Assembly: GCF_000153125.2 (NCBI RefSeq)
Contig: NZ_CM002299.1
Span: forward strand, 2,479,075 to 2,543,074
Length of the DNA: 64,000 bases
DNA from: Congregibacter litoralis KT71
GTDB taxonomy: Bacteria; Pseudomonadota; Gammaproteobacteria; Pseudomonadales; Halieaceae
Direction: 5' to 3'
The translations under genes and the position numbers were made by a program. Below the pieces are notes generated by a model, which worked only from the letters and a program-made list of their open reading frames with translations, ran no database searches and was not told the origin of the DNA. Each line of letters starts with the position of its first letter. The stretch's first letter is position 1. Below, one piece after another: positions 30,470-52,218 of this stretch.

Positions 30470-31702
30470 ATGCCAAGAGTTAAGCTCACCGCCACCTCCG
30501 TACCGCACCTTAAGACCGACCGCACACAGGTCGACTACTTTGATTCTTACTTGCCCGGATTCGGTGTCCGGGTGACTCGGGGCGGAACCCGCACGTACAT
30601 TGTAATGACGCGCGAGCTCGCGAATGGGCACTGGCGAAAGCGCCGTGTCAAACTCGGACGCACGTCAGAGCTCACACTCGCAGACGCCAGGGTAAGAGCT
30701 CGCGCGATACTGACTGCCGCGTCAGAGGGCAAGCACCTGGATGACGTGGCTCCCCCTACACCACGTGACTTGCTCGTTGAGCAGTCGAAACAGACCTTTG
30801 CAAAGGAGAGAGAGCGCTTTCTTTCGTCGTACCGCGGCCGCGGTGGCCGTCGACCAGTCGAGTCCACGCTTGGCGAATATCGCCGATGCTTACAACATAA
30901 CGTGCTCGAGTCATGGACAGACGTACCAGTCCAGGAAATCACTCACGACGATGTGAAGACCGCATTACAGACGGTTATGGACGACGGTCACGAATCGAGG
31001 GCCGTGAAGATTTACACAGTACTAAAACTGCTTTTCGGCTGGCTTTGCGATGAAAATCTGATTTCGATTTCTCCTCTTAGCCAGGTAAAACGCCCAGCCC
31101 ATATCGGAGTCAGAGAACGCGTCCTGAGCGAAGAGGAACTCATACTGATCTGGAATCACGCAGGAGAAGGAATTTACGCAAACATTGTCAGAATTATGAT
31201 GCTAACCGGTCAGCGTCGCCAGGAAGTTGCTGGCATGTGTTGGTCTGAAATCAACTTGGACAAACGAAGGTGGGACATTCCGGGCCAACGCACGAAGAAC
31301 CACCGTCCTCATGTGGTTCCACTCAGCTCGGCTGTGATTAGCATCTTGCACTATCATCGATCGCTGCAGGCGTCGACAAACATGCAGACAGATCTGGTCT
31401 TCACCACTAACGGAAAGGCAGTGTTCGCCGGATGGTCCAAATCGAAAGAACGGCTTGACCGACGTGTCGCCTCAGCCGATTGGCAGCTCCGCGACCTGCG
31501 GAGATCGTTCGCAACGCACGCCAACGAGCTGGGTTACGAGCCTCATGTTATAGAGTCAGCCCTTAACCATGTATCGGGCTCCGCCAAAAGGGGCATCGCC
31601 GGTGTATACAATCGAGCCACATACATCAGGCAGCGGATTCGACTGATACAGCGTTGGTCGAGGCATCTACTTCTGCTCGTAGCGCAGGCGCGCAGATCTT
31701 AG
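30470..31702 (+). CDS. Tyrosine-type site-specific integrase of the conjugative element
   Basis: 410 residues. Residues 1-90 are the DUF4102-type arm-binding domain (VTRGGTRTYIVMTREL and RKRRVKLGRTSELTLADAR). The core-binding and catalytic domains follow, with Arg249 (TGQRRQEV), Arg344 in LRDLRRSF, His367 (ALNHVSG) and the probable nucleophile Tyr380 (GVYNRAT). The first His of the H-x-x-R box is replaced by Arg341 (LRDLRR), a variation seen in some family members. It lies about 210 bp inside the tRNA-Ala fragment and reads into the element. It should drive integration and excision at tRNA-Ala. Confidence 0.92.
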   Translation: MPRVKLTATSVPHLKTDRTQVDYFDSYLPGFGVRVTRGGTRTYIVMTRELANGHWRKRRVKLGRTSELTLADARVRARAILTAASEGKHLDDVAPPTPRDLLVEQSKQTFAKERERFLSSYRGRGGRRPVESTLGEYRRCLQHNVLESWTDVPVQEITHDDVKTALQTVMDDGHESRAVKIYTVLKLLFGWLCDENLISISPLSQVKRPAHIGVRERVLSEEELILIWNHAGEGIYANIVRIMMLTGQRRQEVAGMCWSEINLDKRRWDIPGQRTKNHRPHVVPLSSAVISILHYHRSLQASTNMQTDLVFTTNGKAVFAGWSKSKERLDRRVASADWQLRDLRRSFATHANELGYEPHVIESALNHVSGSAKRGIAGVYNRATYIRQRIRLIQRWSRHLLLLVAQARRS

Positions 31703-33032: not shown

Positions 33033-33083
33033 ATGCTTCTCTACAAGATCAAGGCTCTAAATGCCACTAAGCCTGCTAACTGA
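33033..33083 (+). CDS. Possible 16-codon leader peptide overlapping the kinase start
   Basis: An ATG at 33033 with a strong ribosome binding site (CAGGAGATG, about 6 nt before it) opens a 16-codon frame (MLLYKIKALNATKPAN) ending in TGA at 33081-33083. It overlaps the first codons of the HipA-like kinase in another frame. It could couple translation to the kinase, or be the true N-terminus of the kinase cut off by a frameshift. Too short to support a function. Confidence 0.3.
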   Translation: MLLYKIKALNATKPAN

Positions 33084-33882
33084 AGAGCGCTTCATAGCGC
33101 AACAACCGATGACAAATAGCGAGGGCGATTCTGGTTTCACCGTTATAGCGGAGATAGACGTACCAGGCGCCCCCTGCATGTGCTACCTCAAGTTTTATCC
33201 GCCAGGACAACCCCGCGCACTGATCAATGAGTGTGCTGGCTACATATTGGCTGAGACTTTTGGGTTTTCGGTACCGAAATACGGCGGACTCATAACTCTT
33301 CCAGGGCGCTATCTTTCAAATGCACCATCCTGGATCCCCAAAACCCATACAGTTGGATGGTTCACGACAGACACTTCACACCCGAGCATAAAAAGATCTA
33401 TCAATTGGGTCGCTAGTGCAGGTGCAGGAAGGCAAAAACGCTACCATGCCAAGATAATTGAGATCCTCACCAGCTACCCATCCATTACTCAGAAGATCGT
33501 AGCTTTTGACGAACTAATCGCCAATGCCGATAGAAACATAGGTAATTTACTAGTGAAGGCTGGTGGCTTTGAACTCATAGACCATGGACTCATATTTGGA
33601 GGCGCAGACTGGAAAGCCCCTGACTTAGCGAACCAATTCAATCTGAGTACCCCTAACATCGTTTGGCAGGTTCTTGGTGCAGAAGCAGCTAAGTTACCAT
33701 TCAAACAAGGAACGATAATGGCATACACAAAGCTAATAATAGCGCTTCAAACTGCAGTCGACGAATTGGATTTTGAGTTGTCTAAAGTTTTTGGCGACCA
33801 GGAAATAGATGCTACGAAGCAATTCTTGATCGCAAGATCCACCTGGATAGACATGCCACAGAAGATGGGCTTGCTGGTATGA
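33061..33882 (+). CDS. HipA-like kinase
   Basis: 273 residues, resembling the short HipA-family (HipA_2 type) protein kinases. Kinase-fold marks are a possible ATP-binding Lys44 (CYLKFYPP), a helix with Glu57 (LINECAGYILA), and the catalytic loop ELIANADRNIGNLL, with Asp157 as catalytic base and Asn162 as metal ligand, followed by the metal-binding Asp174 in LIDHGL. HipA kinases phosphorylate proteins such as tRNA synthetases and act as toxins or stress switches. It overlaps the next gene by 4 nt (ATGA at 33879). The AT-rich codons suggest a recent arrival. The target is unknown and no classical HipB antitoxin is adjacent. Confidence 0.72.
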   Translation: MPLSLLTEERFIAQQPMTNSEGDSGFTVIAEIDVPGAPCMCYLKFYPPGQPRALINECAGYILAETFGFSVPKYGGLITLPGRYLSNAPSWIPKTHTVGWFTTDTSHPSIKRSINWVASAGAGRQKRYHAKIIEILTSYPSITQKIVAFDELIANADRNIGNLLVKAGGFELIDHGLIFGGADWKAPDLANQFNLSTPNIVWQVLGAEAAKLPFKQGTIMAYTKLIIALQTAVDELDFELSKVFGDQEIDATKQFLIARSTWIDMPQKMGLLV

Positions 33883-34769
33883 GTCTCGCAAGTAAGATAC
33901 TTCAGAAAGCAGACAAAACTGGGGTTATTGCAAATCCGGTGCGAGGAAAATGGTTTGCAATCAAGTTCACACCCGATCTCTTTGCTGGGGATTCTATTTC
34001 TATAGGCGTCGGGTTTATAAATTCTGCGGGTGTTATAAGAACACGGCTTGCAGATGACTACCAAAGGCTCGCATGCTTCTATGACGACCGCCTAAACATA
34101 TCAGATGTAGAGTTTCTTGCTGGCCTGCTCGACGAAGCCTTGGCGGGGCTGCATGAAGAAGAGTGGCTTAAAAGCAATTTTGGGCCCTCCGTTACTTTTA
34201 CTGATGCAAGCTATGCAGCTGGTAGAAGCGAAACCGAGATCATCGACTCTCTCTTTTTCAACGCCGTCCCGATCGCGCGAACAAAGGTGACTGAGAGAGA
34301 CAAGCAACCAAGGCAACGATTTGAACAAGAATCAACCACGTGTAACAAAATAGGTAAGAGCCTTGGTGACAGATACAAGAACATTGCATCAAAGTTCCAC
34401 CCCAATGGACAGGCTTATGACATAGACAATCAAGGCCACCGGCTCAAGCTTCATTTCAGAGATGAGGGGCGCGCTGCGGGCTATGTAGCGTCAGCATTGA
34501 TTGCCGACGTCTGGAAAGCCGAGGTCAGAGTACGTCGCGGAGTAGATTCACTTCGAACACTTCGAAATTGTGTGCCCGAAGAGCGATGTGGCCTTTTTGT
34601 CGTCCGCCCAGGCGAGACTCATGGCTTAAATGACAGCTTTCTAAACCAATTTGATGATCTTCTTGAGGAGATTCGTTGGCGCTTAGACCGCGAACAGATC
34701 GACCTCCGAGACGCTGACGACACTGACCTGATGGCGGATCAGATAGCCGATTGGTACAACGTAGCATGA
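33879..34769 (+). CDS. Partner protein of the HipA-like kinase, unknown function
   Basis: 296 residues, coupled to the kinase by an ATGA overlap, so the two are made together. The N-terminal segment NPVRGKWFAIKFTPDLFAGDSISIGVGFI resembles the opening of DUF3037 proteins, which are known neighbours of HipA_2-type kinases, but the gene is more than twice the usual DUF3037 length and the rest has no recognisable motif. No signal peptide or membrane helix. It may be an antitoxin, substrate or regulator of the kinase; that is inference from gene pairing only. It is converging on the hsdR gene. Confidence 0.6.
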   Translation: MSLASKILQKADKTGVIANPVRGKWFAIKFTPDLFAGDSISIGVGFINSAGVIRTRLADDYQRLACFYDDRLNISDVEFLAGLLDEALAGLHEEEWLKSNFGPSVTFTDASYAAGRSETEIIDSLFFNAVPIARTKVTERDKQPRQRFEQESTTCNKIGKSLGDRYKNIASKFHPNGQAYDIDNQGHRLKLHFRDEGRAAGYVASALIADVWKAEVRVRRGVDSLRTLRNCVPEERCGLFVVRPGETHGLNDSFLNQFDDLLEEIRWRLDREQIDLRDADDTDLMADQIADWYNVA

Positions 34770-34826: not shown

Positions 34827-37792
34827 TCAGTAGTACTCCCGGATGTACCCATAGGCCTTTTCAAACAGGTCTACGTCCTGGTGCAGTTTGTATCTAAACA
34901 AGGTCTTCCTTAGCGCCATTTTCACCTCTCGCTCACCCGCATTAGTACTCTGCCAGCCATCGAAGCGAACCATACGTACGATTTCATCAATGTCAGTCAC
35001 CACCCGCTCGACAATGATTGGTGTGTCTTCAGTCCGAGCCTCCTCAAACAGCTCGGTAAGAGCAGCTTTGCCGCGCTCGTCATCCTCTATCGGCGGCACC
35101 TCTCTTTCTGTCGCCACCACATCCTGAGCGAGCTTGAGCATTTCCTTCAGAAATTCGACGCTGACCAGAAGACCTTGCTCGTGGCGGTTCTTTAGATCTT
35201 CCAATCGTTCCGCAAGAGCCTTGAATCGAGAGTCATGCTGGTGACTCCGCAGCCTCTTGGAGACTTTGATCTCTATCTCCTTCGACTGCTTCCCGGGATC
35301 GGGAGCTCCAAGCACAGCCTCAAGCAGCTCAGCATCAACCACCAATGTGTCTAGGTCGTCTCGCACCGCGTCCACGTGGACGTTTTCATGAATTAGCTCA
35401 ATGGTCTTCGCGCCCAACTGATGCCATAGCAGCTTGCCTGTAGTGGAGACGGGTTTAACGGATTCGTACACTTGAACGAGCCAACGGTAATCCGCCTCAT
35501 AGCCACCCAACATAGAGTCCGGAGAAATAGCTTCCCACAAACGTGCCATATAGCTCACGTCCTGTGCGAAGCGATCACGAATGTCGTTATTTGGCAGGCA
35601 CTCCTGAGCAACCATAAGACCCTCGTAACCGGCCAGTGTTCTATCTATGCCCGGGAAGTACTCCAAACACTTTTGGATAGCCGGAAGCAGCGAATCCTTG
35701 AGCTCAGATATATTGGAAACTACGCGTGTGATGCCCTCCTCATCGAACTGGATGGCCTGTGCCACATCGTCAAAAATTCCAAGGTAATCGACTATCAGTC
35801 CGTGAGTCTTTTGCTGCCCATACGGACGGTTAGTGCGACAGATCGCCTGTAGCAGGGTGTGATCCCTCAATGGGCGATCGAGGTACATAGTCTGCAATAT
35901 TGGTGCATCAAAGCCCGTGAGCAGCTTGGAGGTGACAATAACAATCTTCAACGGGTCGGTTGGGTCTCGAAACCGATCAAGTAGTTTCCCCTCCGCATCC
36001 CGATCCCGCCGATATGGTGCGTACTCATCTTCACCGCTATTTACTGACATTACGACGTCAGAGGCCTCTGGCGGGAGATATTGGTCAAGCGCCTCTTGTA
36101 GAGGAGGCAACTCTCACGATCGAAGGTAACAACCTGCGCACCAAAGCCGTTTGGGGACACCTTCTCCTGAAAGTGCTGAGCGATGTCGGCACACACCGCT
36201 TGAACGCGGTCAGGAGATTTGAGCAATATCGCCATCTTTGCTGCGTGTTTACCGAGCTGATCTCGCTCCTCGTCGGTGAGGTGAGCGGTTAGCGCCCCAA
36301 ACTCCTCGTCAATTTGTTCTTGATCAACATGAAGATCAACCAGTCTTGGCTCAAAATGCAGCTCCTTGGTAGCGCCGTCTCGAATGGAGTCCTCGAAACC
36401 ATAGCGGCTCATGTAGCCGTTGGCATCTTCATCAGCCCCGAAGGCGTAGAAGGTGTTTTTATCAGCTCGGTTAATCGGTGTACCTGTTAGGCCAAAGAGA
36501 AATGCATTGGGCAGAGCGTCGCGCATTTTGCGCCCAAGGTCCCCCTCTTGAGTTCGATGAGCCTCGTCTACTAACACCACGATATTGTCTCGATCGTTTA
36601 GTACACCATCTGCCTCACCGAACTTGTGGATCGTGGTGATGATAATTTTACGCACGTCCTTACCAAGGAGATCCCGCAGATTCTCACGGCTATCGGCCTT
36701 TACGAGATTTGCGGCGTCATTGGCATAGAAAGTCCCACTGATCTGACTATCAAGATCGATACGGTCAACAACGATCATCACCGTCGGATTCTTAAGTGCT
36801 GGATGCAGGCGCAGTTTGCGGGAAGCGAACAGCATTAGAAGAGATTTTCCAGATCCCTGAAAATGCCAGATCAGGCCCTTTTTTGTACGTCCCCCCACCA
36901 CGCGTTCGACGAGCTTGTTCGTGCCTTCGTACTGCTGATAGCGCGCGATGATCTTGATGCGCTGCTTGCCTTTGTGCGTCGCATACGAACTGAAGTTCGC
37001 CAGCAAGTCGAGGATGACCTGCGGTCGCAGCATCGAGATGACGGCCTTTTCGACCCCTCCCATCGAAGGTAGAGACTCTTCATCCTCCAGCCGCCACGGG
37101 CCCCAGAATTCTACAGGCATCCGAATCGAGCCGTAACGGTACTCCTTACCCTCGGTGGCGATAGAGAATGCGTTCGGCACGAAAAGCTCAGGCACGTTGC
37201 GCTCGTAGTCATCGTGTACCTGCAGCGCCCCATCGAGCCAGCTCTGGCTGGAACGGACAGGGGTCTTCGCCTCGATCAGCACCAATGGCATTCCGTTAAT
37301 GAGAAGGATGAGGTCGGGACGTTTCTCAGTCTTGCCGGCACGGAAGGTGTATTGCTGGGTGACAACGTAATGGTTCTGCTCGAGGTCATCGAAATCGATG
37401 AGCTTGATGGTGACGTGCTCGCCATTCTCGCCGAAGGGCATCGACTTTTCACCCGTGAGCCAGGCAGCGAACTCCTCATTGGCCTTGACTAGGCCGTCGC
37501 TGCGGACGCCCATGATGATCGCCCGCAGCCGATAGAGCACGTCGTCGACGCGATCGGGCTGGGCGGCGATGGTGGGGTTCAGGCGGATAAGGGCCTCGCT
37601 GAGATAATCCTCGACAAGTGCTTCCTGGGGCTGGCGGGGGAGGTTCTCGTAGGAGAGGTAGTGCCAGCCGAGGCCGGAGATTTGGCCGGAACGGCGAGCG
37701 AGGCCGGGACCGACTGCGGTGTGATGCGTAACTCCACCGCAGAGCAGGTCGCGGATAAAGGCTTCGACGGTGTTGGCTTCGTTGAATGTCAT
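34827..37792 (-). pseudogene. hsdR: Type I restriction endonuclease subunit HsdR, frameshifted
   Basis: The frame from the ATG at 37792 (MTFNEANTVEAF) and a second frame starting near 36110 together give one HsdR of about 988 residues. They join at about 36094, where one base appears missing after Lys (TACAAGAGGCG read against the expected TACAAG-GAGGCG). The N-terminal part holds the nuclease motif RPDLILL...VLIEAK (Asp160, Glu174, Lys176), the Walker A FQGSGKS (311-318), the DEAH box VDEAHR (409-412) and LTGTP. The C-terminal helicase part and a helical tail are intact in the second frame. The start overlaps the hsdS stop by 4 nt. The restriction subunit is probably inactive unless the indel is a sequence error. 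Confidence 0.9.
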
Positions 37793-38985
37793 CGCGCCAA
37801 GCTTCCGTAAACTACCTGCCCAGCAAGTTCCCTTGCTACCTGCAGTCGCGCAATGGCCCATCTCCGGGAGGAATCGGCCACGGTAAGTAGTTCTACGACT
37901 TCTTTCTGATAGCCAATGGGAGGGAGCGGCACTAACACTCGTTTTAGATTTGATGCATTGATGTTGGCTTGGCTCACCCCTCGGGTCGCGAACGACATGA
38001 CCTGACGCCTTCCGATAGGTGCTCGCAGGAAGGCAGAGAGATACTCAGGCGACAAACGGTCAATATCGGTTTTCAGACGAATCAGGTAGGAAGCGAAAAC
38101 GAAATCGCCGGGCAAGTCATAGACGCCGGTACGACCGACCAGCTCATAGCTGTTCGTTCGATTAAAGAGCACATCACCGGAAACGAGCCGGTAGGTCTCG
38201 AAGTCAGAATCTGACAGGTCCAGATACTTCAGGTCATCAGCAGTTGCTTTGCCATCCTCGAGGTTCATCATGCGAAGAATCGGATACTGCCCTTTACCGT
38301 GCAGGCTCTCCGAAAGACCGTACTGCGCAGCGGTCAGAAGCTCGCCGAGAGGAACTAGGTTCCAGCCATTAAAATAGCGACCAACACGCTCATGGTAGGT
38401 AGTTGCTCCAAGTGTGGCACCCCTCATCCGGTGGTCAACGAGCGAGTCACGGCTTGAGGTGCCGCGTTCCGAGAGATCGTAGAGAGCGTTCTGGTATCGC
38501 TCTGCGGCGCTCAGCAACTGTACAATCCGCCGCTGCTCCTGCAGGGGTGGGAGGGCGAACTCTTCCTTCGCAAGATCGCGCCAGTTGATGGTCGGTGATA
38601 GACCTCCAACCGAGATCTTAACGGCACGATTCATGAAAATTTCGCTCTGCATAAAGAATGGTAGAAAATCTTCCAGGACTACGTCCGTCTTGGGTCGCAG
38701 GACCATCGCGTGCGCAGAGCAAATCCCGTCAAAGTCCGCTACGCAGAGCTTTCGTTGATAAGCGCGCCGCTTCCCAAAGATGATGTCGCCAGACTTGAAG
38801 AGGATCTTGCTGGACTCAACTTCACTTGTTTCACCCCAGCGCCGAATCTTCAGTGACTCGGGATCAATGTGCTCAAGACCGACATACCGATCCACGTCCG
38901 CCTCGGCGGGGTCGACCTTTTCCTTGACCTGAACAGCCATCTGGTCGAAGCGGAACAACTGGGTTTGCTCGAATGTCTCAAGCAT
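37789..38985 (-). CDS. hsdS: Type I restriction-modification specificity subunit HsdS
   Basis: 398 residues. Two target-recognition domains, each followed by a conserved helical region: LPPLQEQRRIVQLLSAAERYQ (about 150-170) and LPPIGYQKEVVELLTVADSS (about 356-375). It recognises the two halves of the split target site for the MTase and the nuclease. The start at 38985 overlaps the hsdM2 stop by 8 nt, and the stop overlaps the hsdR start by 4 nt. The target sequence cannot be read from the protein. Confidence 0.92.
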   Translation of the reverse strand: MLETFEQTQLFRFDQMAVQVKEKVDPAEADVDRYVGLEHIDPESLKIRRWGETSEVESSKILFKSGDIIFGKRRAYQRKLCVADFDGICSAHAMVLRPKTDVVLEDFLPFFMQSEIFMNRAVKISVGGLSPTINWRDLAKEEFALPPLQEQRRIVQLLSAAERYQNALYDLSERGTSSRDSLVDHRMRGATLGATTYHERVGRYFNGWNLVPLGELLTAAQYGLSESLHGKGQYPILRMMNLEDGKATADDLKYLDLSDSDFETYRLVSGDVLFNRTNSYELVGRTGVYDLPGDFVFASYLIRLKTDIDRLSPEYLSAFLRAPIGRRQVMSFATRGVSQANINASNLKRVLVPLPPIGYQKEVVELLTVADSSRRWAIARLQVARELAGQVVYGSLAR

Positions 38986-40483
38986 CGCGAGCCTCCTCGG
39001 CTATAACGCCATCGAGCAACTCGACGAGGGAGTCCATCTCAGCCCAGAAGTCCCGACCATTGGCTTCGAATGACGCCCATGATGCAGGCAGATCCGCTCT
39101 ACCTTTCCCAACGTCATGCGGGGTGACCTTCTCGACGTACTTGGGAATCGAGAGGTCGCCGTTCTTGGCTAGTACCTCCTCGGTTGTCGCTACAAAGGTG
39201 AAGCCGGGGTTATCTGCGAAATCTCGGTATGCTCAAGGATTCTGGCTTGGTGTTCCGGTTTCAGAAAGCTCTGGGCTTCTCGCGGGCCACGTCATTGAGC
39301 GCATTGATGAAGAGGATCTTTCCTCTTCGCTCAGAGAGTTTCGACGTGCGGCAAATCAGCACGCAGGCTTCCATTGGCGAGTTGTAGAACAGGTTTGGTC
39401 CAAGCCCGAGAACACACTCCAGCAGGTCTGCCTCGATGAGCTTAGTCCGCATATCGGCCTCTTCGTTCCGGAAAAGCACGCCGTGCGGAAAGAGAATCGC
39501 GCAGCGCCCTGTCTGGGGGTCCATGCTCTTCAGGATGTGCTGGAAGAAGGCGTAGTCGGCGCGGCCCTGCGGCGGCGTGCCGAGGAAGTTGCGGCCCCAT
39601 TGATCGCTCTGCCAGGCTACGCGATTCCACTTCTTGATGGAGTACGGCGGATTGGCGAGGACTACATCGAAGGTCTTGAGCCGATCGCCCTCGATCAGAG
39701 CCGGTTCGTGCAGCGTGTTGCCGCTGCGGATGTCGAAATCGGACACGCCATGCAGCACCAGGTTCATGCGAGCGATGGCCGCGGTAATGTTGATGAGCTC
39801 CTGCCCGTAGAGGCCCATGGTGCGGGTATCGCCGCTGGTACGTTTCACCTCGGCCAGGCAGGAAATGAGCATGCCGCCGGTGCCGCAGGTCGGGTCGTAG
39901 ATGATCTCGCCCGCCTTGGGCTCGAGCATCTGCGCCATCAGGTGCACGAGCGTACGGTTGGTGTAGAACTCCTGCGCAGTGTGGCCGCTGTCGTCGGCGA
40001 ACTGCTTGATGAGGTACTCGTAGCCGTTGCCGAGCTCATCCTCGGGCACATTGGCGAGGCTCAGCGTGTGCTTTGAGAAATGCTCGATAAGGTTTTTGAG
40101 CGTCTCGTCAGGCATCTGGGCCTTGTCGGTCCAGGCGGCGTTGCCGAAGACGCCCTCCAGCCGCTGCGGGTTGGCGGCCTCGATGGCCTGGTAGGCGTTC
40201 AGCAGGGCCCGGCCGACATCGCGTGAGGCATTGCGGGCGCCTTTCCAATGAGCGCCTTCGGGAATCGTGAAACGGTCGTTGGCGGTGGCTGTCGCATAGC
40301 CTTCGTCCTGGGAGTCCTCGAAGGCTTCGCGGTAGTCCTCATCCCAGACATCCGAGAGACGCTTGAAGAAGAGCAGCGGGAAGATGTACTGCTGTAGTCG
40401 CTGGCATCAATCAGTCCGCGCAGCAACGTGGCAGCGTCCCAGAGGTAGGACTCGAGCTCCTTCTGTAAGAGGTGGTGGCTCAT
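38978..40483 (-). pseudogene. hsdM: Second type I methyltransferase subunit HsdM2, three frameshifts
   Basis: Conceptually a 502-residue N6-adenine methyltransferase subunit, starting MSHHLLQKELESYLWDAATL (ATG at 40483) and ending EEARDA just before hsdS. The frame is broken three times by single missing bases: about 40393 (TACAGCAG for TACAAGCAG), about 39275 (AAGCCCAG for AAGGCCCAG) and about 39232 (GAGCATAC for GAGGCATAC). The total length returns to a multiple of three. The SAM-binding DPTCGTGGM and catalytic NPPY (VLANPPYSIKKW) motifs are intact in the middle frame. It differs clearly from HsdM1 (40965). Inactive as written unless the indels are errors. Confidence 0.88.
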
Positions 40484-40974
40484 CAATCGCTCCGTTCCTT
40501 TATTCGTGTTTTGAGGCGTGAATCCAAATCGTCACCATTCTTTAGGGTGAATTCGCGTAGCTTCTCTCCGCTGGTTAGAAATAACTCAATCGCCTCGTGA
40601 GCTTTTCCATCGCTAACGGTCCCATTGCCATGTACAACTCGACCACGTACTGCCATAGCGTTGTCTTTAATCGAGGTTAGCTTGCCGAGAACCGTCCCAA
40701 GTGCGGCTTGCCTGAATCGTGGCTGGACCTCTCTCCTCCAAATTGAAAGATAACCCTCGCGGTTACCTCGATCACTTATCGAGTAAACCTGTTCAAGCTG
40801 CTCACGAAGGGCGCTAGTTGGAGATTGACCAAGTTTCAATATCGTCCGTTTAAGCATCCACTCAAAAGGAACAGCAGCAATAATGACTGCCGTTGTCGGA
40901 TCTTTCTCGCCGATTTTGCGGATCTTGGCTTCACGCCTTTCGCTGCCGAAGCTAACGGAAAACATCAGATCCAA
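40483..40974 (-). CDS. HEPN-like protein between two hsdM genes, unknown function
   Basis: 163 residues, alpha-helical, without signal or membrane segment. It has the R-x4-H pattern of HEPN ribonucleases near residue 110 (Arg110-Gly-Arg-Val-Val-His115 in VRGRVVHGNG), in a helical context like abortive-infection HEPN proteins. It overlaps the hsdM1 stop by 10 nt and meets the hsdM2 start at its stop (TGATG), so it is translated as part of the RM operon. HEPN RNases inside type I RM operons are known, for example the PrrC anticodon nuclease, which is unlike this protein in size. The family is not certain; it could be a non-enzymatic HEPN antitoxin or regulator. Confidence 0.6.
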   Translation of the reverse strand: MDLMFSVSFGSERREAKIRKIGEKDPTTAVIIAAVPFEWMLKRTILKLGQSPTSALREQLEQVYSISDRGNREGYLSIWRREVQPRFRQAALGTVLGKLTSIKDNAMAVRGRVVHGNGTVSDGKAHEAIELFLTSGEKLREFTLKNGDDLDSRLKTRIKERSD

Positions 40975-42458
40975 CCACCGTCATTGAGAACGTTCCGAAG
41001 ATGGTCTTCGGCGGAGCGCGCTTCGGTGAGTGCTTCCTTGAACGCAGCGACGGCCTCGGGCAGTAGCGGAATGTCCTCGCCGATTGGCGGCAGGACGTAG
41101 CGGGAGATGTTGAGCGTCCAGCCTTCGTCCTTAATCTCATCGACAGCGACGACTTTCGCGCGGTCCTCGACATCCTCAAAGGCCTGGAACCACTTGACGA
41201 TCTGCTCGCCGTGCTTCGAGTCGAGGAAGTTCTGGGCGCGGCCCTTTCGGAAGAGGCTCGAAGCGTCGATGATGAGCACCTTATTCTTTCGCTCGGCGGG
41301 CTTCTTGCGGCGGAGGATCACGACGCAGCCGGCGAGACCAGTGCCGTAGAAGAGGTTCGGCGCGAGGCCTATGACAGCTTCGATCAGGTCCTCCCTGAGC
41401 AAGACTTCGCGAATCTTGCCTTCGGCGCTCTTGCGAAAGAGCGCGCCCTGCGGGAGGACAACGGCCATTCGGCTGCCTCTGCCCTGGGCCATCGATGCGA
41501 TCATGTGCTGGACGAAGGCGTAATCACCGTAGCTGTCCGGGGGCATGCCGTACTGCGCTCGGCCCCAGGGGTCGTTCTCCCAGACCTCGCGTCCCCATTC
41601 CTTGAGCGAGAACGGTGGATTGGCGATCACGCAGTCGAAGGTAGCGAGGCCGCCAGCACCGTCGGTGAAGGCGGGATCGCGGAGAGTGTCCTCGCGTGCG
41701 ACCTGAAAGTCCTCGATGCCATGGAGGACGAGGTTCATCCGGGCGACCGAGGAGGTCGTGAGGTTCTTCTCCTGGCCGTAGATCTTGCCGAAGAAAGTGC
41801 GCGGATCGCCGCCGTTTCTCTTCACATGGTCGATGGCGGCGAGCAGCATGCCGCCGGTGCCGCAGGCAGGGTCGTAGATCGACTCGCCTTCTTTGGGGTC
41901 GAGGATCTCGACCATCATGCGAACCACGCTACGGGGCGTGTAGAATTCTCCGGCCTTGTTGCGTCGGTTGACGTCGGCGAACTTGCCGACGAGGTGCTCG
42001 TAGGCATCACCGAGGATGTCGGTGTCTACAGAGTTATTGCCGAGTTTTATCGAAGAGAAACCCTCGATCAGGTCCTTGAGGAGCTCGTCGGTGAACTTCT
42101 CCTTGTTGCCCCAGTCGGCGGCACCGAAGATGCGGTAGAGCGTGTCGGGGTTGGCGCGCTCGATCTCCTGCATGGCGTGTTTGAGGGCGGCTCCGACATT
42201 CTGAGCGGTGCCGCGAACGTCGTTCCAGTGACACCCCTCGGGGACCTGGAAACGATGCATTTCTTGATAGAGACTGGGGTCGGGGTCTCCGAAAAGCTCA
42301 GATGCCTCGGCAGTCTCTTCGTCCCAGCAGTCGCTAATTCGCTTGAAGAATAGGAGTGGTAGGATGTAGCCCTTCCAGTCTGTCCGGTCAACTGCAGAGC
42401 CGCGGAGGGTATTGGCGGCCTCCCAGAGCGTGGATTTTAGATTTGAAGATTGACTCAT
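40965..42458 (-). CDS. hsdM: Type I restriction-modification methyltransferase subunit HsdM1
   Basis: 497 residues, intact. The N-terminal helical domain (MSQSSNLKSTLWEAANTLRG) is followed by the catalytic N6-adenine methyltransferase domain with the SAM motif DPACGTGGM (about 196-204) and catalytic NPPF (280-283). The C-terminal helices are complete. It starts the operon hsdM1 - HEPN-like - hsdM2 - hsdS - hsdR. Since hsdM2 is broken, this is the only full methyltransferase subunit for the single HsdS; whether it pairs with it is unknown. Confidence 0.93.
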   Translation of the reverse strand: MSQSSNLKSTLWEAANTLRGSAVDRTDWKGYILPLLFFKRISDCWDEETAEASELFGDPDPSLYQEMHRFQVPEGCHWNDVRGTAQNVGAALKHAMQEIERANPDTLYRIFGAADWGNKEKFTDELLKDLIEGFSSIKLGNNSVDTDILGDAYEHLVGKFADVNRRNKAGEFYTPRSVVRMMVEILDPKEGESIYDPACGTGGMLLAAIDHVKRNGGDPRTFFGKIYGQEKNLTTSSVARMNLVLHGIEDFQVAREDTLRDPAFTDGAGGLATFDCVIANPPFSLKEWGREVWENDPWGRAQYGMPPDSYGDYAFVQHMIASMAQGRGSRMAVVLPQGALFRKSAEGKIREVLLREDLIEAVIGLAPNLFYGTGLAGCVVILRRKKPAERKNKVLIIDASSLFRKGRAQNFLDSKHGEQIVKWFQAFEDVEDRAKVVAVDEIKDEGWTLNISRYVLPPIGEDIPLLPEAVAAFKEALTEARSAEDHLRNVLNDGGWI

Positions 42459-42975: not shown

Positions 42976-43194
42976 ATGAACCAAGTCATCAGGAATACGC
43001 TAGTCGGCACATTAACCGTCATTCGCCTAGGCTTTGACCTGCTACGTGAGGGTCTCGCGCTGCTCGCCAGCGTACCAGAGTCCACACTTGGGCAAGACGC
43101 CCTGAGCAGCGCGGTGCGCGGTGGCGAGTTAAATTACCGAACCGGCGAACTAGACGACGGTACCGATGCTGCCGGCTGGTACGAAAGAGACTAA
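42976..43194 (+). CDS. Small hypothetical protein
   Basis: 72 residues from an ATG with a GGAG ribosome binding site 6 nt upstream. The N-terminal third is weakly hydrophobic (TVIRLGFDLLREGLALLA) and could be a membrane-associated amphipathic helix; the rest is acidic. It converges on and overlaps the traG stop by 4 nt. I do not recognise it; a small element protein is likely. It is the only plus-strand gene in the right part of the element. Confidence 0.45.
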   Translation: MNQVIRNTLVGTLTVIRLGFDLLREGLALLASVPESTLGQDALSSAVRGGELNYRTGELDDGTDAAGWYERD

Positions 43195-44758
43195 CGTGCC
43201 TTCCCTTTTGTTAGCGCCATCTTACCGATACTTCCTCCCTGGTTTCCCGCATCCTGCGCGGGAGCCTTAATGGGATTCGATGCAGATTCGATCGACCTGC
43301 CCACTTGTACCCCCGCCCACGCCATCATTCCGCTCCACAACAATGGCAACCCTAAATACAGGCTTGTGGTGATCATGTTGAGCAGCATGCGCTTTGCATC
43401 GTGTTCGCCGGGGTTAGCGAAGATCTGAAGGAAGGTGTTCGCGTCTGGGTACATCGACAAAATCAGGTTCTGATCCACCCACAGGGCCAAATACCACAGC
43501 ACGCTCCAGAACTTGACCGTGCAGATTGCCATGGCACCCACGACCATCATTGATAGCGAGTAGCGGGACAGCACTACTATCATCGGTAGCAAGGCGTAAA
43601 TGCCGAGCAACATCAACGCCTGAACCATCGGCAGCGACTGCAGGACAGCGGTCATGGTTACTGAGAAGAGCGCCGAAGCAGTCACCACCCCTCCCCCGGC
43701 TAAACCGCCCTTGATCATGTTCTGGACGGAGCCGAACCAGGCGGTACTCGTCGTATTACGCGCAACAAGCTCATTGCTTGACCACGACGGCGGCGCACTG
43801 GCCAGCACAGCTCGTACCACGGCATCTTCCTGTTGTTCGCTTGCCAGCGTCGGAGCTACGGCGACCACAAGACCGGATAAGCCGGCCGAAGTCGCATCGG
43901 CCTCGTCGATCAACTTCAGGCGAAGGCCTTGGGTATTGTCTTCCCACCACTGCTTGCATACAGGCTTTCCCCAGGTGGGCGGCGAGGCAGGGTCGTACTC
44001 GGTGTCGCGGACTGGATCGTAGGCCCAACCAGATATCTGTCTCGACGGACGCTGAGTGTCGTAATAGCCGGGCGTCTTGCGATAAACGTGCGAGCCCATC
44101 CAGTCGGGGTCATCATTCCCATAGTTAGTGAGAATTGCGGCCACCGACGGTATTGCTGGCCTTTCTGCCTGATATTTCGATCGCGCAGGGACATAGCACT
44201 CACTGAAGAAGTCGCTAACCTCCTGACGAAGGCGCGGGTCGGCGATTGTGGCAAGTCGCGCCTGTTGCTCGTAGGTCCGCAGGTCGCTGGCCGTGGGCAA
44301 TCCCTCGACCACCGCGTGAGTAAATCCCGAACTCATCGCCAACACGGCATACCACCACACTGGAATGTTGACGGTCGCGGGTGACCCGGTGAATCCGGTT
44401 ACACCGTAGGTACTTTCTGGCGCAGCGACTGTCGCAGTCCCAGGCGTCGGAGCAACCAGCGTAGGGTGTGGGTCGTAGCTCAGGGTGCCGGCATTAAGCG
44501 GTGTCAGCGCCGCCGGCTGCCCCGCCAGTACGACGACAAACAGCGCGAGGAACAGTTCTATCTCCATACGTCGCAAGGAGAGAGGCCCGTGACCGTACCG
44601 AACTCGCCGCCCTCCGCAGGTTCACGCCAGTTATCGATCAGGATCCCCAGAAACGGCAAATAGACAATCCCGGTGCCGACAAGTACGTCCCACAGCACGC
44701 CGTAGAAGGCCCAACCGAACAAGGTCGTGAACAGCTCTAGATAGCTGTCGACACTCAC
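43191..44758 (-). pseudogene. TraG-like conjugation mating-pair protein, frameshifted
   Basis: Conceptually a membrane protein of about 522 residues, homologous to the TraG N-terminal domain proteins that end the transfer operon of GI/MPF-G elements. The N-terminal piece (GTG at 44758, MSVDSYLELFTTLFGWAFYGVLWDVLVGTG) ends at a TAG near 44558. The rest of the protein is in another frame from about 44576 (LRRMEIELFLALFVVVLAG). One base must be added or removed near 44577-44583. The C-terminal half has the hydrophobic segments typical of TraG. The start overlaps the stop of the small gene cut by IS3 (GTGA), so both were coupled. Confidence 0.8.
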
Positions 44759-44829: not shown

Positions 44830-45705
44830 TCAATATGCCACCTGACTGTGGCGGTGCTGCGTAGCGTACTGTACCGGGGATAGGTAACCGAGGCGCGCTT
44901 GTTTCCGAGTCCGGTTGTAGAAGATCTCAATATACTCCCGGATCGCTGCTCTCGCCTGCGCACGCGTCTCAAAGCGTTCATGGTGAATGAGCTCCGACTT
45001 CAGGATTCCCCAAACGCTCTCCATCGGCGCGTTGTCCCAACAGTTTCCTTTGCGGCTCATGGACGACAGCATCTGGTGCTGCCGTAGCAGCTGCTGATAG
45101 CTCCTCGCACAGTACTGACTGCCGCGATCGGAATGATGAAGAAGCCCAGGACCTGGTTGCCTGACATCGATCGCACGGCGCAGTGCCGTCTCCGTCAGGT
45201 TAACCGTCATCCGTTCCGACATCGCGTATCCGACAAGCTCCCCGTTGAACAGGTCTTTGATGCCTGCCAGGTACAGCCAGCCCTCGGCGGTGTCGACGTA
45301 GGTGAGATCCGTCAGCCACACCTTGTTCGGCACATCGACGGAGAACTGTCTGGCAAGCCGGTTCGGCGCCACAGGCAGCCTGTGCTTCGAGTCCGTGGTC
45401 ACACGGAACCGCCGCTTCTGCTTGCAGCGAAGGCCCTGCTCGCGGCGAATACGCTTGATGCGGTGTACGCCGACACGAATACCGTTGTCGGCAAGATCGG
45501 ACTGAAGTCGCTCGGGACCATACGTCCTGCGCGTGCGCTCGTGAGCCGCCTTGATCTCCAGCGTCAAACGCGCGTTCGCCTTCGACCGTGGTGACGGCGG
45601 CCGCTTGCGCCAGGCGTAGTAGCCGCTCTCGGATACGTCCAGCAGACGGCACATCGCGGCGACAGAGTGCTCGTGCCGTAGCCGGTGAATCTGCGCGTAC
45701 CTCAC
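44830..45705 (-). CDS. IS3-family transposase OrfB
   Basis: 291 residues with an rve integrase core. The DDE acids are in VWLTDLTYVD, LLHHSDRGSQY and GNCWDNAPMESVWG. It starts with a GTG that overlaps the orfA stop by 4 nt. In IS3 elements the active transposase is an OrfAB fusion made by -1 frameshifting, and the slippery AAAAAAG on the minus strand (45741-45735) lies in the right place near the end of orfA. Confidence 0.93.
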   Translation of the reverse strand: MRYAQIHRLRHEHSVAAMCRLLDVSESGYYAWRKRPPSPRSKANARLTLEIKAAHERTRRTYGPERLQSDLADNGIRVGVHRIKRIRREQGLRCKQKRRFRVTTDSKHRLPVAPNRLARQFSVDVPNKVWLTDLTYVDTAEGWLYLAGIKDLFNGELVGYAMSERMTVNLTETALRRAIDVRQPGPGLLHHSDRGSQYCARSYQQLLRQHQMLSSMSRKGNCWDNAPMESVWGILKSELIHHERFETRAQARAAIREYIEIFYNRTRKQARLGYLSPVQYATQHRHSQVAY

Positions 45706-46004
45706 CGGGATTCCTTCGCGAAGTACGCCGCAAACTTTTTTAGCAGATCGCGCTCCTGCTTGACCTCAGCGAGCTCACGCCGGGCACGGGCCAGCTCCAT
45801 CTCAAGCTCTGTGGGTGCGCGCTGATGCTCACCCACCTGCTTCAGCTTTCCTGCCCGGGCTGCACGCACCCAGTTACTGAGACTGCTCTTGGGGATCGAC
45901 AGCCGCTCTGCCGCCTTCGCCACCGACATGCCGGTCGACTCAACCAGCTTCACGGCCTCAGCCCGGAACTCCGGCGTGTAAGATGCCTTGGGGATTCTTT
46001 CCAT
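45702..46004 (-). CDS. IS3-family transposase OrfA
   Basis: About 100 residues from the ATG at 46004 (MERIPKASYTPEFRAEAVKL), which follows a GGAGG ribosome binding site; the longer frame to 46049 is not needed. It has a helix-turn-helix (SVAKAAERLSIPKSSLSNWVR) and a C-terminal leucine-zipper-like coiled coil (LEMELARARRELAEVKQERDLLKK). It binds the IS ends. An AAAAAAG slippery heptamer near its 3' end (45741-45735) should allow -1 frameshifting into orfB. Confidence 0.92.
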   Translation of the reverse strand: MERIPKASYTPEFRAEAVKLVESTGMSVAKAAERLSIPKSSLSNWVRAARAGKLKQVGEHQRAPTELEMELARARRELAEVKQERDLLKKFAAYFAKESR

Positions 46005-46064
46005 CGTTGTCCTCCAGATCGTAAAGATAAACGATCCGATGGACTCCACGAATTCCGACCGACC

Positions 46065-49455: not shown

Positions 49456-52218
49456 TCACCCGCCTCGGTCGGCCGCAATGCGCTCCGCGACGACATGAAC
49501 CGCTTCCAGTTCGGTGCAGCCGCGCTCGCGCATGATGTGCGCGCGCTCGGCTTTTTCATGTTTTTCTGTCATCGCGAGTGCTAGCGCCAGTGGGGGCGGC
49601 ACGCTGCGAAACAGTGCTTCGAGATTATCGGACAACACAACGCCTTCCACATATTTGCCAGGCTCTTTACGGGCAGATAGAAGTAGGCTGCGTTGCTCGG
49701 CGTTGAGGTCTTTAAATCGGGCGATCTGCTCAACCTCTTCCTTGGGCATCACGAGGCAGAGCCACCATTCCATCATGTTCAGCATCTTGCGGCTCGCGTC
49801 CGGAAAATCCTCAAGATTCTGCGTCGCTATCCAGAACCAGGCACCGAGCTTGCGCCACATCTTGGTGATTTTGACAACGTAGCGGGCCAGCAGTGGATTC
49901 GTGGTGATGATATGGCCTTCATCGGTAACCACTAGCGTGGGTCGGGCATCATTCTGATGTCGCTCCACCAGCGCATTGATATGGCTCATCATGGAAATGT
50001 ACGCAACCGTTAGCTGATCTTCATAACCCTCGCGCGCCAGGATCCCCATTTCAAGAATGGTGACGTCTGCTTCGGGCCATGGCGTACCGGGCCGATCAAA
50101 GAAATCACCCGCCAGACCAGAACAAAAGAGCGCCATGCCGTCACTCATCTCCAGCGCGCGGTTGCGCCGATACTCGGGCAGCGCTGGGTCACGGCCGATG
50201 CCGTTGAGTGCGGCGACGACATCGCGCGTTAGCACCTGATCACGGCCTGCATCATTGACGGACTTTGCAGCCAGCAAAATGGCGTTGCGGATCACTAGCC
50301 GATCAGCCCTAGTCATGCGAGCGTCTTCTCGCTCATCGCCCCCAGTGATCATGATACGGGCAGCGATCTCCATCTCGCCAAGGATGTCACGCCCAGCGCC
50401 GTCAGTTTCATCATCCTCTTCTCCTGTGTCCGCCAATGCGCTTTCATCTGTGATCAACCGGACTCGCTTATCTTTTTCCAATAACCGCAGGGCATCACCA
50501 AAGGGCGGCAGGCTTACGTCGGCGCCAGGGTTTAGGCTGACTTGATTAACAGTGAGTCCGTGACCGGCAAAGTGCTGTCCAAGCAGTGAAAATGACCCGC
50601 CGGCCTCGATGATGAACATACGTGGTCGGTGGACCGCGGCCATCTGCTGGAGCAAATACACCAGCAAAGCCGACTTGCCGGCGCCCGTGGGGCCCAAAAT
50701 CAGCATATGCGCGTTTTTCTTACGATCAGCGCTGTGCAGGGGATCGAAGACCAGTGGTTCAGCCCCGCGATTAAAAAAAACAAAGCCGGGGTTGCCGGTA
50801 CCGCGAGACCGGCCATAGACCGGCAGCAGGTTGGCGATATGTTTTGAAAAGACGAGTCGCGAGCGGCGGGACGTTCGATCAAGCCGGGTGTCATACGCCA
50901 TCGGCAGGTTACGAAGATAACTGTCCAGTGCCAGAAGGTCGGCCTCGCGTGTAATGGGCTGCAGGGCATTCGGCAGTAACAAGGCATTGAGCTGATTGAC
51001 GTTCTTTTGAAGAGACCCCATATCTTGGCCGCGCACATAGAACGCCAGTTGCATCGGGTACAGCTTGTTGCCAGACGCCATCTCGCGCTCGACGGCGCTG
51101 GCATCTTCCCGGGTCAGCTCCGCCTCGGCGGAATCCCCCGCAGCGGCCCGTCTTACCAGGCCCACCTGATTACGCATTTGGTCCTGTGGTTTTACGGTGA
51201 TCGTCAGCGCCATCACCGTGTGCTCAGGAAGTCGGTCAAAAAGTGAAAAAACATGATCGCCCGCGGCACGCTCTGCCGTCATGTGACCGATGTCCGGCGC
51301 CCGGCGCAGGCCCTGTATGGTCACCACTGTATGGGGCAATCCGTCGAACCACCAAGTACCGGTCGCGTTATCAGACCGCGGAGACGCGAGGGTCAGTGAT
51401 TCCGCAAAGTCTGCCCCAAAAGGTAAGGTGTCATCGTCAGGGTACGGCGCGACCTTACGCAACTGCTCGACATCTCCATCGACACACCCGGGTCGCGGGT
51501 TGAACCACGGCAGTAGCCAGCGATACAAGTCCGCCCCGCTTCCGCATCGGCACTGAATGTTTGCGGCGCCCAACGCCGCCGTCAATTGGGTGGCCACGTC
51601 ACTCAGCTCGGCCTCGACTTCCAGTGCGCCGGGCATTCGGCCACGGGCATTTAAACGCCGGTAAAGCACCGCGCGTACGCGGCGCATCTGCCCCCGCCAA
51701 CTCGTACCGGTCAGAGCGGTGTCTTCGAATAGACCGCCCGCCCGACTGATACGTGCGCAATGCGTTTTAAAGAGTTCAAGGTACTCGCGCGTGTACGCTC
51801 TGTTATTTACGTGTGCGGGTAGGTAATCCTCCACGTCGCGCACAAAGCCCGACAGACTCGGCTCATCCTGCACATACAGCTGTAGTATCCACGGCGTATC
51901 ACTACACTCAGGAATGGCTTCGGTGATCGCGGTTTGAATCGCGTCGCGCAGTGTTTCCATAAAAGCGGGTGTACGCGCCTCAGTCCCCACTGGGGTGAGC
52001 TCAAACAGTGCGCCGACGCTGATTCCGTCTTCCAGCAAAAAGCTTTGACTCTCGGGAAGGTACTCGACCCACGGCAAATAATCGGTAAACGAGGGCGGAC
52101 GATCGTACAGATCGTTGACATCCTGCGTCGTGAGCGGGCACGGGCACGGCGAAAATGCTGCAGACTGGGACGAGGATGTCGACGAGTTTGTCCGGCTAGG
52201 CTTTTCGCGTCTCGACAT
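49456..52218 (-). CDS. Conjugative transfer ATPase VirB4/TraC, PFL_4706-like (TIGR03744)
   Basis: 920 residues, full length. The Walker A motif LGPTGAGKSALL is at 509-517 and a Walker B-type segment RPTLVVTDEGHI lies near 800. It powers pilus assembly and DNA transfer at the inner membrane. The N-terminal domain, including NHLF-like sections up to residue 460, is intact. It begins 2 bp after the stop of the lipoprotein gene and is 107 bp from the next gene. The reading frame shows no defect, in contrast to hsd and traG. Confidence 0.93.
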   Translation of the reverse strand: MSRREKPSRTNSSTSSSQSAAFSPCPCPLTTQDVNDLYDRPPSFTDYLPWVEYLPESQSFLLEDGISVGALFELTPVGTEARTPAFMETLRDAIQTAITEAIPECSDTPWILQLYVQDEPSLSGFVRDVEDYLPAHVNNRAYTREYLELFKTHCARISRAGGLFEDTALTGTSWRGQMRRVRAVLYRRLNARGRMPGALEVEAELSDVATQLTAALGAANIQCRCGSGADLYRWLLPWFNPRPGCVDGDVEQLRKVAPYPDDDTLPFGADFAESLTLASPRSDNATGTWWFDGLPHTVVTIQGLRRAPDIGHMTAERAAGDHVFSLFDRLPEHTVMALTITVKPQDQMRNQVGLVRRAAAGDSAEAELTREDASAVEREMASGNKLYPMQLAFYVRGQDMGSLQKNVNQLNALLLPNALQPITREADLLALDSYLRNLPMAYDTRLDRTSRRSRLVFSKHIANLLPVYGRSRGTGNPGFVFFNRGAEPLVFDPLHSADRKKNAHMLILGPTGAGKSALLVYLLQQMAAVHRPRMFIIEAGGSFSLLGQHFAGHGLTVNQVSLNPGADVSLPPFGDALRLLEKDKRVRLITDESALADTGEEDDETDGAGRDILGEMEIAARIMITGGDEREDARMTRADRLVIRNAILLAAKSVNDAGRDQVLTRDVVAALNGIGRDPALPEYRRNRALEMSDGMALFCSGLAGDFFDRPGTPWPEADVTILEMGILAREGYEDQLTVAYISMMSHINALVERHQNDARPTLVVTDEGHIITTNPLLARYVVKITKMWRKLGAWFWIATQNLEDFPDASRKMLNMMEWWLCLVMPKEEVEQIARFKDLNAEQRSLLLSARKEPGKYVEGVVLSDNLEALFRSVPPPLALALAMTEKHEKAERAHIMRERGCTELEAVHVVAERIAADRGG

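What the first reader, a model, noticed from the sequence alone, without database searches (positions are those of the whole stretch)
34827..42458. Type I RM operon with two hsdM genes and a HEPN-like gene between them
The order hsdM1 - small helical protein - hsdM2 - hsdS - hsdR is joined by overlapping starts and stops throughout (10 nt; TGATG; 8 nt; 4 nt), so all five are one translation unit. A type I system normally has one hsdM. The inserted 163-residue protein carries an R-x4-H pattern (Arg110, His115) like HEPN ribonucleases, which occur as back-up toxins in RM operons (PrrC is the known case, though unlike in size). A possible logic is a modification complex with a built-in RNase that kills the cell when restriction is blocked. 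The HEPN assignment is inference from one motif and helical content.
Basis: partly seen in the sequence, partly recalled or inferred. Interest (0 to 1): 0.72.

Follow-up and report, generated by a model that had tools for sequence, protein, structure and literature searches.

The report
RNase-like gene inside restriction operon
A DNA-restriction operon of a known two-methylase type carries, at the junction between its two methylase genes, a small unnamed gene that looks like an RNA-cutting suicide protein; related operons have the same gene, other genes or nothing at that spot, which suggests an exchangeable weapon slot.

Summary
The layout is real: hsdM1, small gene, hsdM2, hsdS, hsdR, joined by 1-, 1-, 8- and 4-nt overlaps. 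Two hsdM genes are not odd: M1 (NPPF) and M2 (NPPY) match the two subunits of the PacII-type m6A/m4C methylase. The small protein is the new part. Five members were kept, all between M1 and M2, with no credible Pfam, NCBIfam, PADLOC, PHROG or PDB sequence match. Both HEPN signatures, Arg-x4-His and Glu-x3-[Lys/Arg], are invariant. Low-confidence models have HEPN-T structures as most probable fold matches, not significantly. HEPN is likely, not shown. In 19 genomes with M1 and M2 the junction holds this gene in 3, other genes in 5, nothing in 10, unclear in 1. Two operons about 94% identical in M1 and M2 differ in having the gene. Most likely it is an exchangeable accessory effector, perhaps an RNase released when restriction is blocked (PrrC-like, untested). 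New variant of a known kind.

The parts
40965..42458 (-). hsdM1, 497 aa, catalytic motif NPPF (m6A-type M1 subunit), intact
   Evidence: Pfam N6_Mtase 5e-95, HsdM_N 3e-20; best PDB match 7vru_A, PacII, 3e-151
40483..40965 (-). small accessory gene, 160 aa from ATG (163 aa from TTG 40974), intact; HEPN-like, motifs E35-x3-K39 and R107-x4-H112-G
   Evidence: ORF; four relatives at the same junction elsewhere; motifs invariant; fold comparison; no credible family-library match
38978..40483 (-). hsdM2, motif NPPY (m4C-type M2 subunit), reading frame interrupted (three frame changes)
   Evidence: tblastn pieces in three frames spanning residues 4-500 of the 504-aa Rhodoferax M2; best PDB match of its 284-aa ATG-started piece is 7vru_B, PacII, 1e-112
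37789..38985 (-). hsdS, 398 aa, two specificity-domain stretches, intact
   Evidence: Pfam Methylase_S, 2 stretches, 2.8e-20
34827..37792 (-). hsdR, split over two frames (one frame change near 36080)
   Evidence: Pfam HSDR_N 4e-32, SWI2_SNF2 1e-72; tblastn pieces 37792-36077 and 36089-34830

Best explanation
The operon is a PacII-type (non-canonical, M1/M2 heterodimer) type I restriction-modification system, probably carried on a conjugative-type mobile element. The small gene is an exchangeable accessory effector fitted tightly into the M1|M2 junction (start/stop overlaps on both sides in the window and in G1031; directly abutting, within 2 nt, in L007 and L008), so it is probably made in step with the modification enzyme without breaking it. 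The protein is most likely a small HEPN-fold, metal-independent RNase with R107/H112 (and E35) as active site. Proposed working, inferred and not shown: it is kept silent by the assembled RM complex or by M1/M2, and cuts host or phage RNA when that complex is blocked or missing, giving a second line of defence and/or addiction. Shown by sequence: the operon type, the conserved position, purifying selection on the small gene in three members, invariant motifs, repeated gain or loss. Inferred: RNase activity, inhibition by the RM subunits, trigger.
For: M1 and M2 pair with the two PacII chains; NPPF/NPPY as in PMC9613975. Five kept members, all between M1 and M2; intact M1-small-M2-S-R frames in the Rhodoferax MAG. 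E-x3-[KR] and R-x4-H invariant; column-shuffle chance 0.043 for Rx4H and 0.015 for Rx4-6H plus an upstream Ex3[KR]. Model of the Rhodoferax member (pLDDT 64): helices 6-17, 24-45 (with the E), insert 50-64 and 66-85, 92-110 (ending in the R), loop with the H, 119-154, the HEPN layout described in PMC3710099. Foldseek PDB: ranks 1 and 2 are 2q00 (probability 0.95) and 2hsb (0.92), both listed as HEPN-T in PMC3710099; for the window protein's own model the most probable of the 50 rows shown is again 2q00 (0.66, TM 0.60 by target). dN/dS 0.05-0.10. At least 5 gains or losses on the M2 tree, as many as there are carriers. GC of the small gene is below both M1 and M2 in 5 of 5 loci. The pair G1031/G1107: M1 93.5% (293 aa compared) and M2 93.7% identical, gene present versus absent, with an ATGA overlap at each junction.
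Against: No credible match in Pfam, NCBIfam, PADLOC, PHROGs or PDB sequences. Foldseek E-values are not significant (0.34, 0.61; none at or below 0.001), the models have pLDDT 64 and 55, and by E-value the window model's first ten hits are other helical proteins, 2q00 being 11th. Profile comparison with five HEPN_RiboL-PSP segments gives E 0.024 but probability only 2%; with five PF05168 segments E 0.34 (that comparison also failed to join those two HEPN sets to each other, E 0.85, so it is insensitive). The residue after R is G in four of five members, not the typical N/D/H. In the window hsdM2 and hsdR are interrupted while the small gene stays open, hard to square with a toxin needing a full RM complex for restraint, unless M1 and S suffice or the breaks are sequencing errors. 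The tree behind the gain/loss count is partly unresolved (12 of 20 inner branches well supported). No activity data exist.
Confidence: 0.5

Rival explanations
1. The small protein is a HEPN-type toxin that works as a stand-alone addiction or abortive-infection module, neutralised by M1 or M2 rather than by the whole RM complex; it stabilises the mobile element and reacts to loss of the operon, not to anti-restriction proteins.
For: Mobile-element context (integrase, TraG_N, TraC_F_IV, TraG-D_C); small gene, M1 and S open while M2 and R are interrupted; lower GC than M1 and M2; an XRE/M78 (ImmA-like) gene follows M2 in two related operons.
Against: Position is M1|M2 in 5 of 5 kept members; a free TA pair would be expected elsewhere too, yet the searches made gave elsewhere only two weak hits that I rejected (L003, L009).
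Confidence: 0.25
2. The small protein is a non-toxic helical subunit or assembly/regulatory factor of the M1M2S methylase, and the Arg-x4-His pattern is coincidental.
For: No HMM match to any HEPN family; Rx4H alone has a 4% column-shuffle chance; tight junctions with M1 and M2.
Against: A system about 94% identical in M1 and M2 does without it; 10 of 19 genomes have nothing at the junction; the most probable fold matches are HEPN-T.
Confidence: 0.15
3. The protein is a HEPN RNase that directly degrades phage transcripts or tRNA during infection as part of the restriction response, without killing the cell.
For: PMC3710099 describes HEPN domains attacking viral RNA directly as well as suicidal ones (abstract passage).
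Against: No evidence on target or timing.
Confidence: 0.1

Closest known systems
PacII-type non-canonical type I RM (M1M2S, m6A/m4C; PMC9613975, PDB 7vru/7vs4)
   Same: Two M subunits, M1 NPPF and M2 NPPY, one S, one R; M1 and the 284-aa M2 piece have the two PacII chains as best PDB matches.
   Different: The parts read of PMC9613975 (passages and Introduction) mention no gene between M1 and M2; here a 160-aa gene sits there, and M2 and R are frame-interrupted in this genome.
PrrC with EcoPrrI (type IC RM with an embedded HEPN anticodon nuclease)
   Same: A (predicted) HEPN RNase gene embedded in a type I hsd operon; possible guard logic.
   Different: PrrC has an N-terminal ABC NTPase domain and responds to nucleotide and Stp signals (PMC3710099); this protein is 160 aa with no other recognised domain, and the RM class differs.
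HEPN-T proteins 2q00 (Parep1/8) and 2hsb (AF0298)
   Same: Most probable fold matches.
   Different: Per PMC3710099 these families lack R or, typically, H of the motif, whereas the small protein keeps both; 10-15% identity and E-values not significant.
HEPN_RiboL-PSP (PF18735)
   Same: Similar motif segment (RNHVAHG against RGRVVHG in the profile comparison).
   Different: Not matched by the Pfam model; profile comparison weak.

Membership tests
PacII-type (M1M2S) type I RM | Two different M subunits, one NPPF and one NPPY | tested here: met
   Read in the translations; best PDB matches 7vru_A and 7vru_B
PacII-type (M1M2S) type I RM | One S subunit and one R subunit in the operon | tested here: met
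   Methylase_S; HSDR_N and SWI2_SNF2; R is split over two frames
PacII-type (M1M2S) type I RM | Intact M2 and R frames in this genome | tested here: not met
   Three frame changes in M2, one in R
PacII-type (M1M2S) type I RM | m6A on one strand and m4C on the other | not testable with these tools
   Needs methylome data
HEPN superfamily | Conserved R-x4-6-H | tested here: met
   R107 and H112 invariant in 5 of 5 kept members; column-shuffle chance 0.043 for Rx4H, 0.126 for Rx4-6H
HEPN superfamily | Upstream E-x3-[KR] (many families) | tested here: met
   E35 invariant, K or R at +4 in 5 of 5
HEPN superfamily | Polar N/D/H after the motif R (typical, not universal) | tested here: not met
   G in four members, H in one
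HEPN superfamily | Four-helix fold with insert between helices 2 and 3, motif at the end of helix 3 | tested here: inconclusive
   Layout agrees in the models and the most probable fold matches shown are HEPN-T, but models are low-confidence and E-values not significant
HEPN superfamily | Match to a curated HEPN HMM | tested here: not met
   No HEPN family matched in Pfam, NCBIfam, PADLOC or PHROGs
HEPN superfamily | Metal-independent RNase activity | not testable with these tools
   Needs an assay
PrrC/RloC | N-terminal ABC NTPase domain fused to HEPN | tested here: not met
   160-aa protein, no Pfam domain

The most novel reading that the evidence does not exclude
In M1M2S type I systems the M1|M2 boundary (and the one after M2) works as an exchange slot: effector genes are gained, lost or swapped there while the genes stay tightly joined, so the restriction enzyme is a sensor platform for interchangeable abortive weapons. 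The M1|M2 slot held a HEPN-like gene in 3, DUF4062 plus Schlafen-AlbA_2 in 1, other small proteins in 4 and nothing in 10 of 19 genomes (1 unclear); after M2 came XRE/M78 in two loci and AAA plus subtilase in one. The small HEPN-like family would then be a new class of RM-guarding RNase specific to this slot.
Probability: 0.4. Interest if true: 0.72.

Novelty: new variant of a known kind. Interest (0 to 1): 0.5.

Why it matters
RM systems with built-in suicide proteins that have been worked out at the bench are few (PrrC is the model; my knowledge and PMC12707154 passages). A compact predicted RNase in the M1M2S class, with two natural operons about 94% identical in M1 and M2 of which one has the gene and one lacks it, would let one test directly whether a restriction enzyme holds a toxin in check and what releases it. 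If the slot reading holds, it also tells where to look for unnamed defence effectors: at the junctions of two-methylase type I operons. Linkage of HEPN proteins with RM operons and repeated replacement of toxins in RM loci are already in print (PMC3710099, PMC3506569), so the general idea is not new.

Tried and rejected
Rejected: 'two hsdM genes are anomalous' (known M1M2S class). Rejected: 'unique chance insertion' (five loci). Dropped as spurious: L003 (E 5.9e-4; the match lies inside a 699-aa ORF that I recognise from memory as polynucleotide phosphorylase, no hsdM seen by eye in the ORF list) and L009 (E 5e-5, 34% over residues 15-75; the match lies antisense inside an 861-aa ORF, no hsdM seen by eye in the list; not searched further). 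The two Halocatena plasmid records (E 7e-3) are annotated universal stress protein there; one was viewed (no RM gene) and both were dropped.

Gave nothing: three viral-contig scans; phage records with two members; plasmid records with the window and G1031 members; PDB sequence profiles (none; one unrelated hit at E 1.1); viral fold library (none at or below E 0.001; the 50 of 115 rows shown name no HEPN protein, many have no name). Profile comparison with HEPN sets was weak and its positive control (two HEPN sets against each other) also failed, E 0.85. No paper title or abstract start describing a gene between M1 and M2 was seen in searches (15 of 288 listed; 20 of 162; 4 of 4; 15 of 96; 20 of 31); the library is open-licence PMC only. 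The founding M1M2 paper (Morgan et al. 2016, recalled) is not held, so its gene maps were not checked and the gene may be drawn there unnamed.

I only saw that greedy ORFs cover 90% of the window; the rest of the window was not tested frame by frame against relatives.
Full report
What is there. On the minus strand, 42458 down to 34827, lie hsdM1, a small gene, hsdM2, hsdS and hsdR. The junctions read from the sequence are: TGATG between hsdM1 and the small gene if its ATG at 40965 is used (10 nt with the upstream TTG), TGATG between the small gene and hsdM2, 8 nt between hsdM2 and hsdS, 4 nt between hsdS and hsdR. It did not see that hsdM2 homology runs through four pieces in three frames and hsdR through two pieces in two frames, while hsdM1, the small gene and hsdS are open. 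Homology to the Rhodoferax M2 spans residues 4-500 of 504, so little is lost except the frame. Intact copies exist elsewhere (L008). Whether this is decay or sequencing error could not be settled; greedy ORFs cover 90% of the window.

The two hsdM genes. M1 carries NPPF and M2 NPPY. M1's best PDB match is chain A and that of the 284-aa M2 piece is chain B of 7vru, the PacII M1M2S methylase (3e-151 and 1e-112). PMC9613975 (passages and Introduction read) describes this class: M1 with NPPF makes m6A, M2 with NPPY makes m4C. So the second hsdM is no anomaly. The discovery paper (Morgan et al. 2016, recalled) is not held.

The small gene is a family. It had no match in Pfam, PADLOC or PHROGs and only far sub-threshold ones in NCBIfam (best E 0.037, unrelated), and none in plasmids or phages (65 and 66 for the G1031 member; 38 for the Rhodoferax member gave only two records at E 7e-3, annotated universal stress protein). 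Searches of whole genomes gave: 3 of 274 (own, G107, and L003, which I drop), 1 of 140 in its own family (itself), 2 of 398 in its phylum, 2 of 250 in the order of G107 (G107 and G1031), 1 of 180 (G107), 1 of 4 (G1031). These samples overlap. The genome-contig scan gave three loci: a Propionivibrio MAG (L007), a Rhodoferax MAG (L008), and L009, which I drop. That leaves five members: window, G107, L007, L008, G1031. All five lie between an M1 and an M2 (window). In G1031, M1 matches only from about residue 188 on. The junctions are overlaps in the window and G1031; in L007 and L008 the small gene's ATG lies 2 nt after the M1 stop and M2's GTG directly after its own stop.

Conservation. The window protein is 33-34% identical to the others. 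Among L007, L008 and G107 the gene is 84-90% identical with dN/dS 0.05-0.10, like M1 and M2 (0.05-0.09), so it is under purifying selection. G1031's copy is only 41-44% identical to those, although its M1 (292 aa compared) is 84-92% and its M2 82-87% identical to theirs, which fits exchange of the gene within a conserved frame. Its GC is below that of both M1 and M2 in 5 of 5 loci; hsdS of L008 is lower still.

Is it HEPN? For: E35-x3-[KR] and R107-x4-H112-G are invariant. Shuffling alignment columns gives Rx4H by chance in 4.3%, Rx4-6H in 12.6%, and Rx4-6H with an upstream Ex3[KR] in 1.5%, so motifs alone are suggestive only. PMC3710099 (sections 6 and 10 read, other passages; [quoted passage not shown] The model of the Rhodoferax member (pLDDT 63.8, pTM 0.62) shows that order. 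Foldseek's first two PDB hits are 2q00 and 2hsb (probabilities 0.95 and 0.92), both HEPN-T in PMC3710099's table; the second 2q00 chain (0.69), 2jpu, whose title names the same target SsR10 (0.30), Csm6 (0.21) and two MntA-HepT-type toxin-antitoxin entries (0.08, 0.07) also appear among the 50 of 81 rows shown. The window protein's own model (pLDDT 54.9) has 2q00 as the most probable of the 50 of 299 rows shown (0.66; TM 0.60 by target), though at rank 11 by E-value. Against: no E-value at or below 0.001 in either search, low model confidence, G instead of N/D/H after R in four members, no HMM match, and profile comparison at best E 0.024 with probability 2% (reversed controls E 0.63; two HEPN sets against each other E 0.85, so the method is insensitive). 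I put HEPN at about 0.75, a judgement.

The junction as a slot. With the Rhodoferax M2 as query I found M1M2 systems in 9 of 369 genomes of the class (E at or below 1e-135) and 12 of 250 of the order of G107 (E at or below 1e-165); two are shared, so 19 genomes and 20 loci. The query favours relatives of that M2. Contents between M1 and M2: this gene in 3 (G000, G107, G1031); other genes in 5 (G210: DUF4062 plus SLFN_AlbA_2; G890: 120 aa; G242 and G1099: a shared 75-aa protein; G084: 77 aa with sub-threshold zinc-ribbon hits); nothing in 10; unclear in 1 (G038, a 973-nt gap with no ORF over 67 aa). Plasmid systems of Streptomyces and Exiguobacterium have nothing there. After M2, L007 and G224 have an XRE/M78 gene (in G224 the window's S found no hsdS in the 12 kb fetched) and G242 an AAA ATPase and a subtilase before hsdS; that side was not surveyed in the rest. 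On an M2 tree of 24 rows (window by its open piece; L007 and L008 added because found through the gene, L010 and L011 from plasmids) presence of the HEPN-like gene needs at least 5 changes, as many as there are carriers, and slot states at least 9, G038 left out. The tree has 12 of 20 inner branches well supported, and the only shuffle control run set carriers against other-cargo rows alone: 2 changes, reached by 39 of 500 shuffles. G1031 and G1107 are 93.5% identical in M1 (293 aa compared) and 93.7% in M2; one has the gene, the other has M1 and M2 joined directly, with ATGA overlaps at each junction. Their S and R were not compared.

Mechanism. Described for PrrC (PMC3710099 section 10, PMC3506569 and PMC12707154 passages): an RM complex holds a HEPN nuclease silent until anti-restriction releases it. 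The anatomy here fits a similar logic with a far smaller protein, but nothing was shown on activity, partner or trigger. Tension: in the window the partners M2 and R appear broken while the small gene is open; either M1 and S suffice for restraint, or the protein is not toxic by itself, or the breaks are errors.

Context. The operon lies near a tyrosine-recombinase integrase (30470-31702) and F-type-like conjugation genes (TraG_N, TraC_F_IV, TraG-D_C), so it is probably cargo of an integrative conjugative element.

Verdict. Linkage of HEPN with RM and toxin replacement in RM loci are in print; this family and this slot were not seen in the listings of searches.

Noticed in passing
window 34827-37792 and 38978-40483: hsdR and hsdM2 change reading frame (one and three times) while hsdM1, the small gene and hsdS are open; decay or sequencing error.
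   Followed up: partly
window 33061-34769 (+): A 273-aa protein with weak, sub-cutoff HipA_2/PI3-kinase hits overlapping a 296-aa protein without confident Pfam match, convergent with the RM operon; possibly a second small defence or toxin module.
   Followed up: no
window 30470-31702, 43191-44576, 49456-52218, 62018-64000: Integrase and F-type-like conjugation genes (TraG_N, TraC, TraD/TraG C-terminus): the RM operon is probably cargo of an integrative conjugative element. An IS3-like transposase pair (44830-46049) lies beside the TraG_N gene.
   Followed up: partly
L031 9168-9797 and 7697-9175 (G210): DUF4062 and SLFN_AlbA_2 proteins sit between M1 and M2 of a PacII-type operon.
   Followed up: partly
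L018 2988-3215 and L051 1262-1489 (G242, G1099): A nearly identical 75-aa protein of no Pfam family (one copy scanned) sits between M1 and M2 in two genomes of different families.
   Followed up: partly
L035 4035-7385 (G242); L007 3938-5191; L033 3935-5083 (G224): Genes after M2: AAA ATPase plus subtilase before hsdS in one operon, XRE/M78 peptidase genes in two (in G224 no hsdS was found by the window's S within the 12 kb fetched).
   Followed up: partly
G1100:C1:1197916-1199421 and 1265347-1266852 (L043, L052): Two copies of the M1-M2 pair about 67 kb apart in one single-contig genome, with identical M2 rows in the tree; S and R not checked.
   Followed up: no
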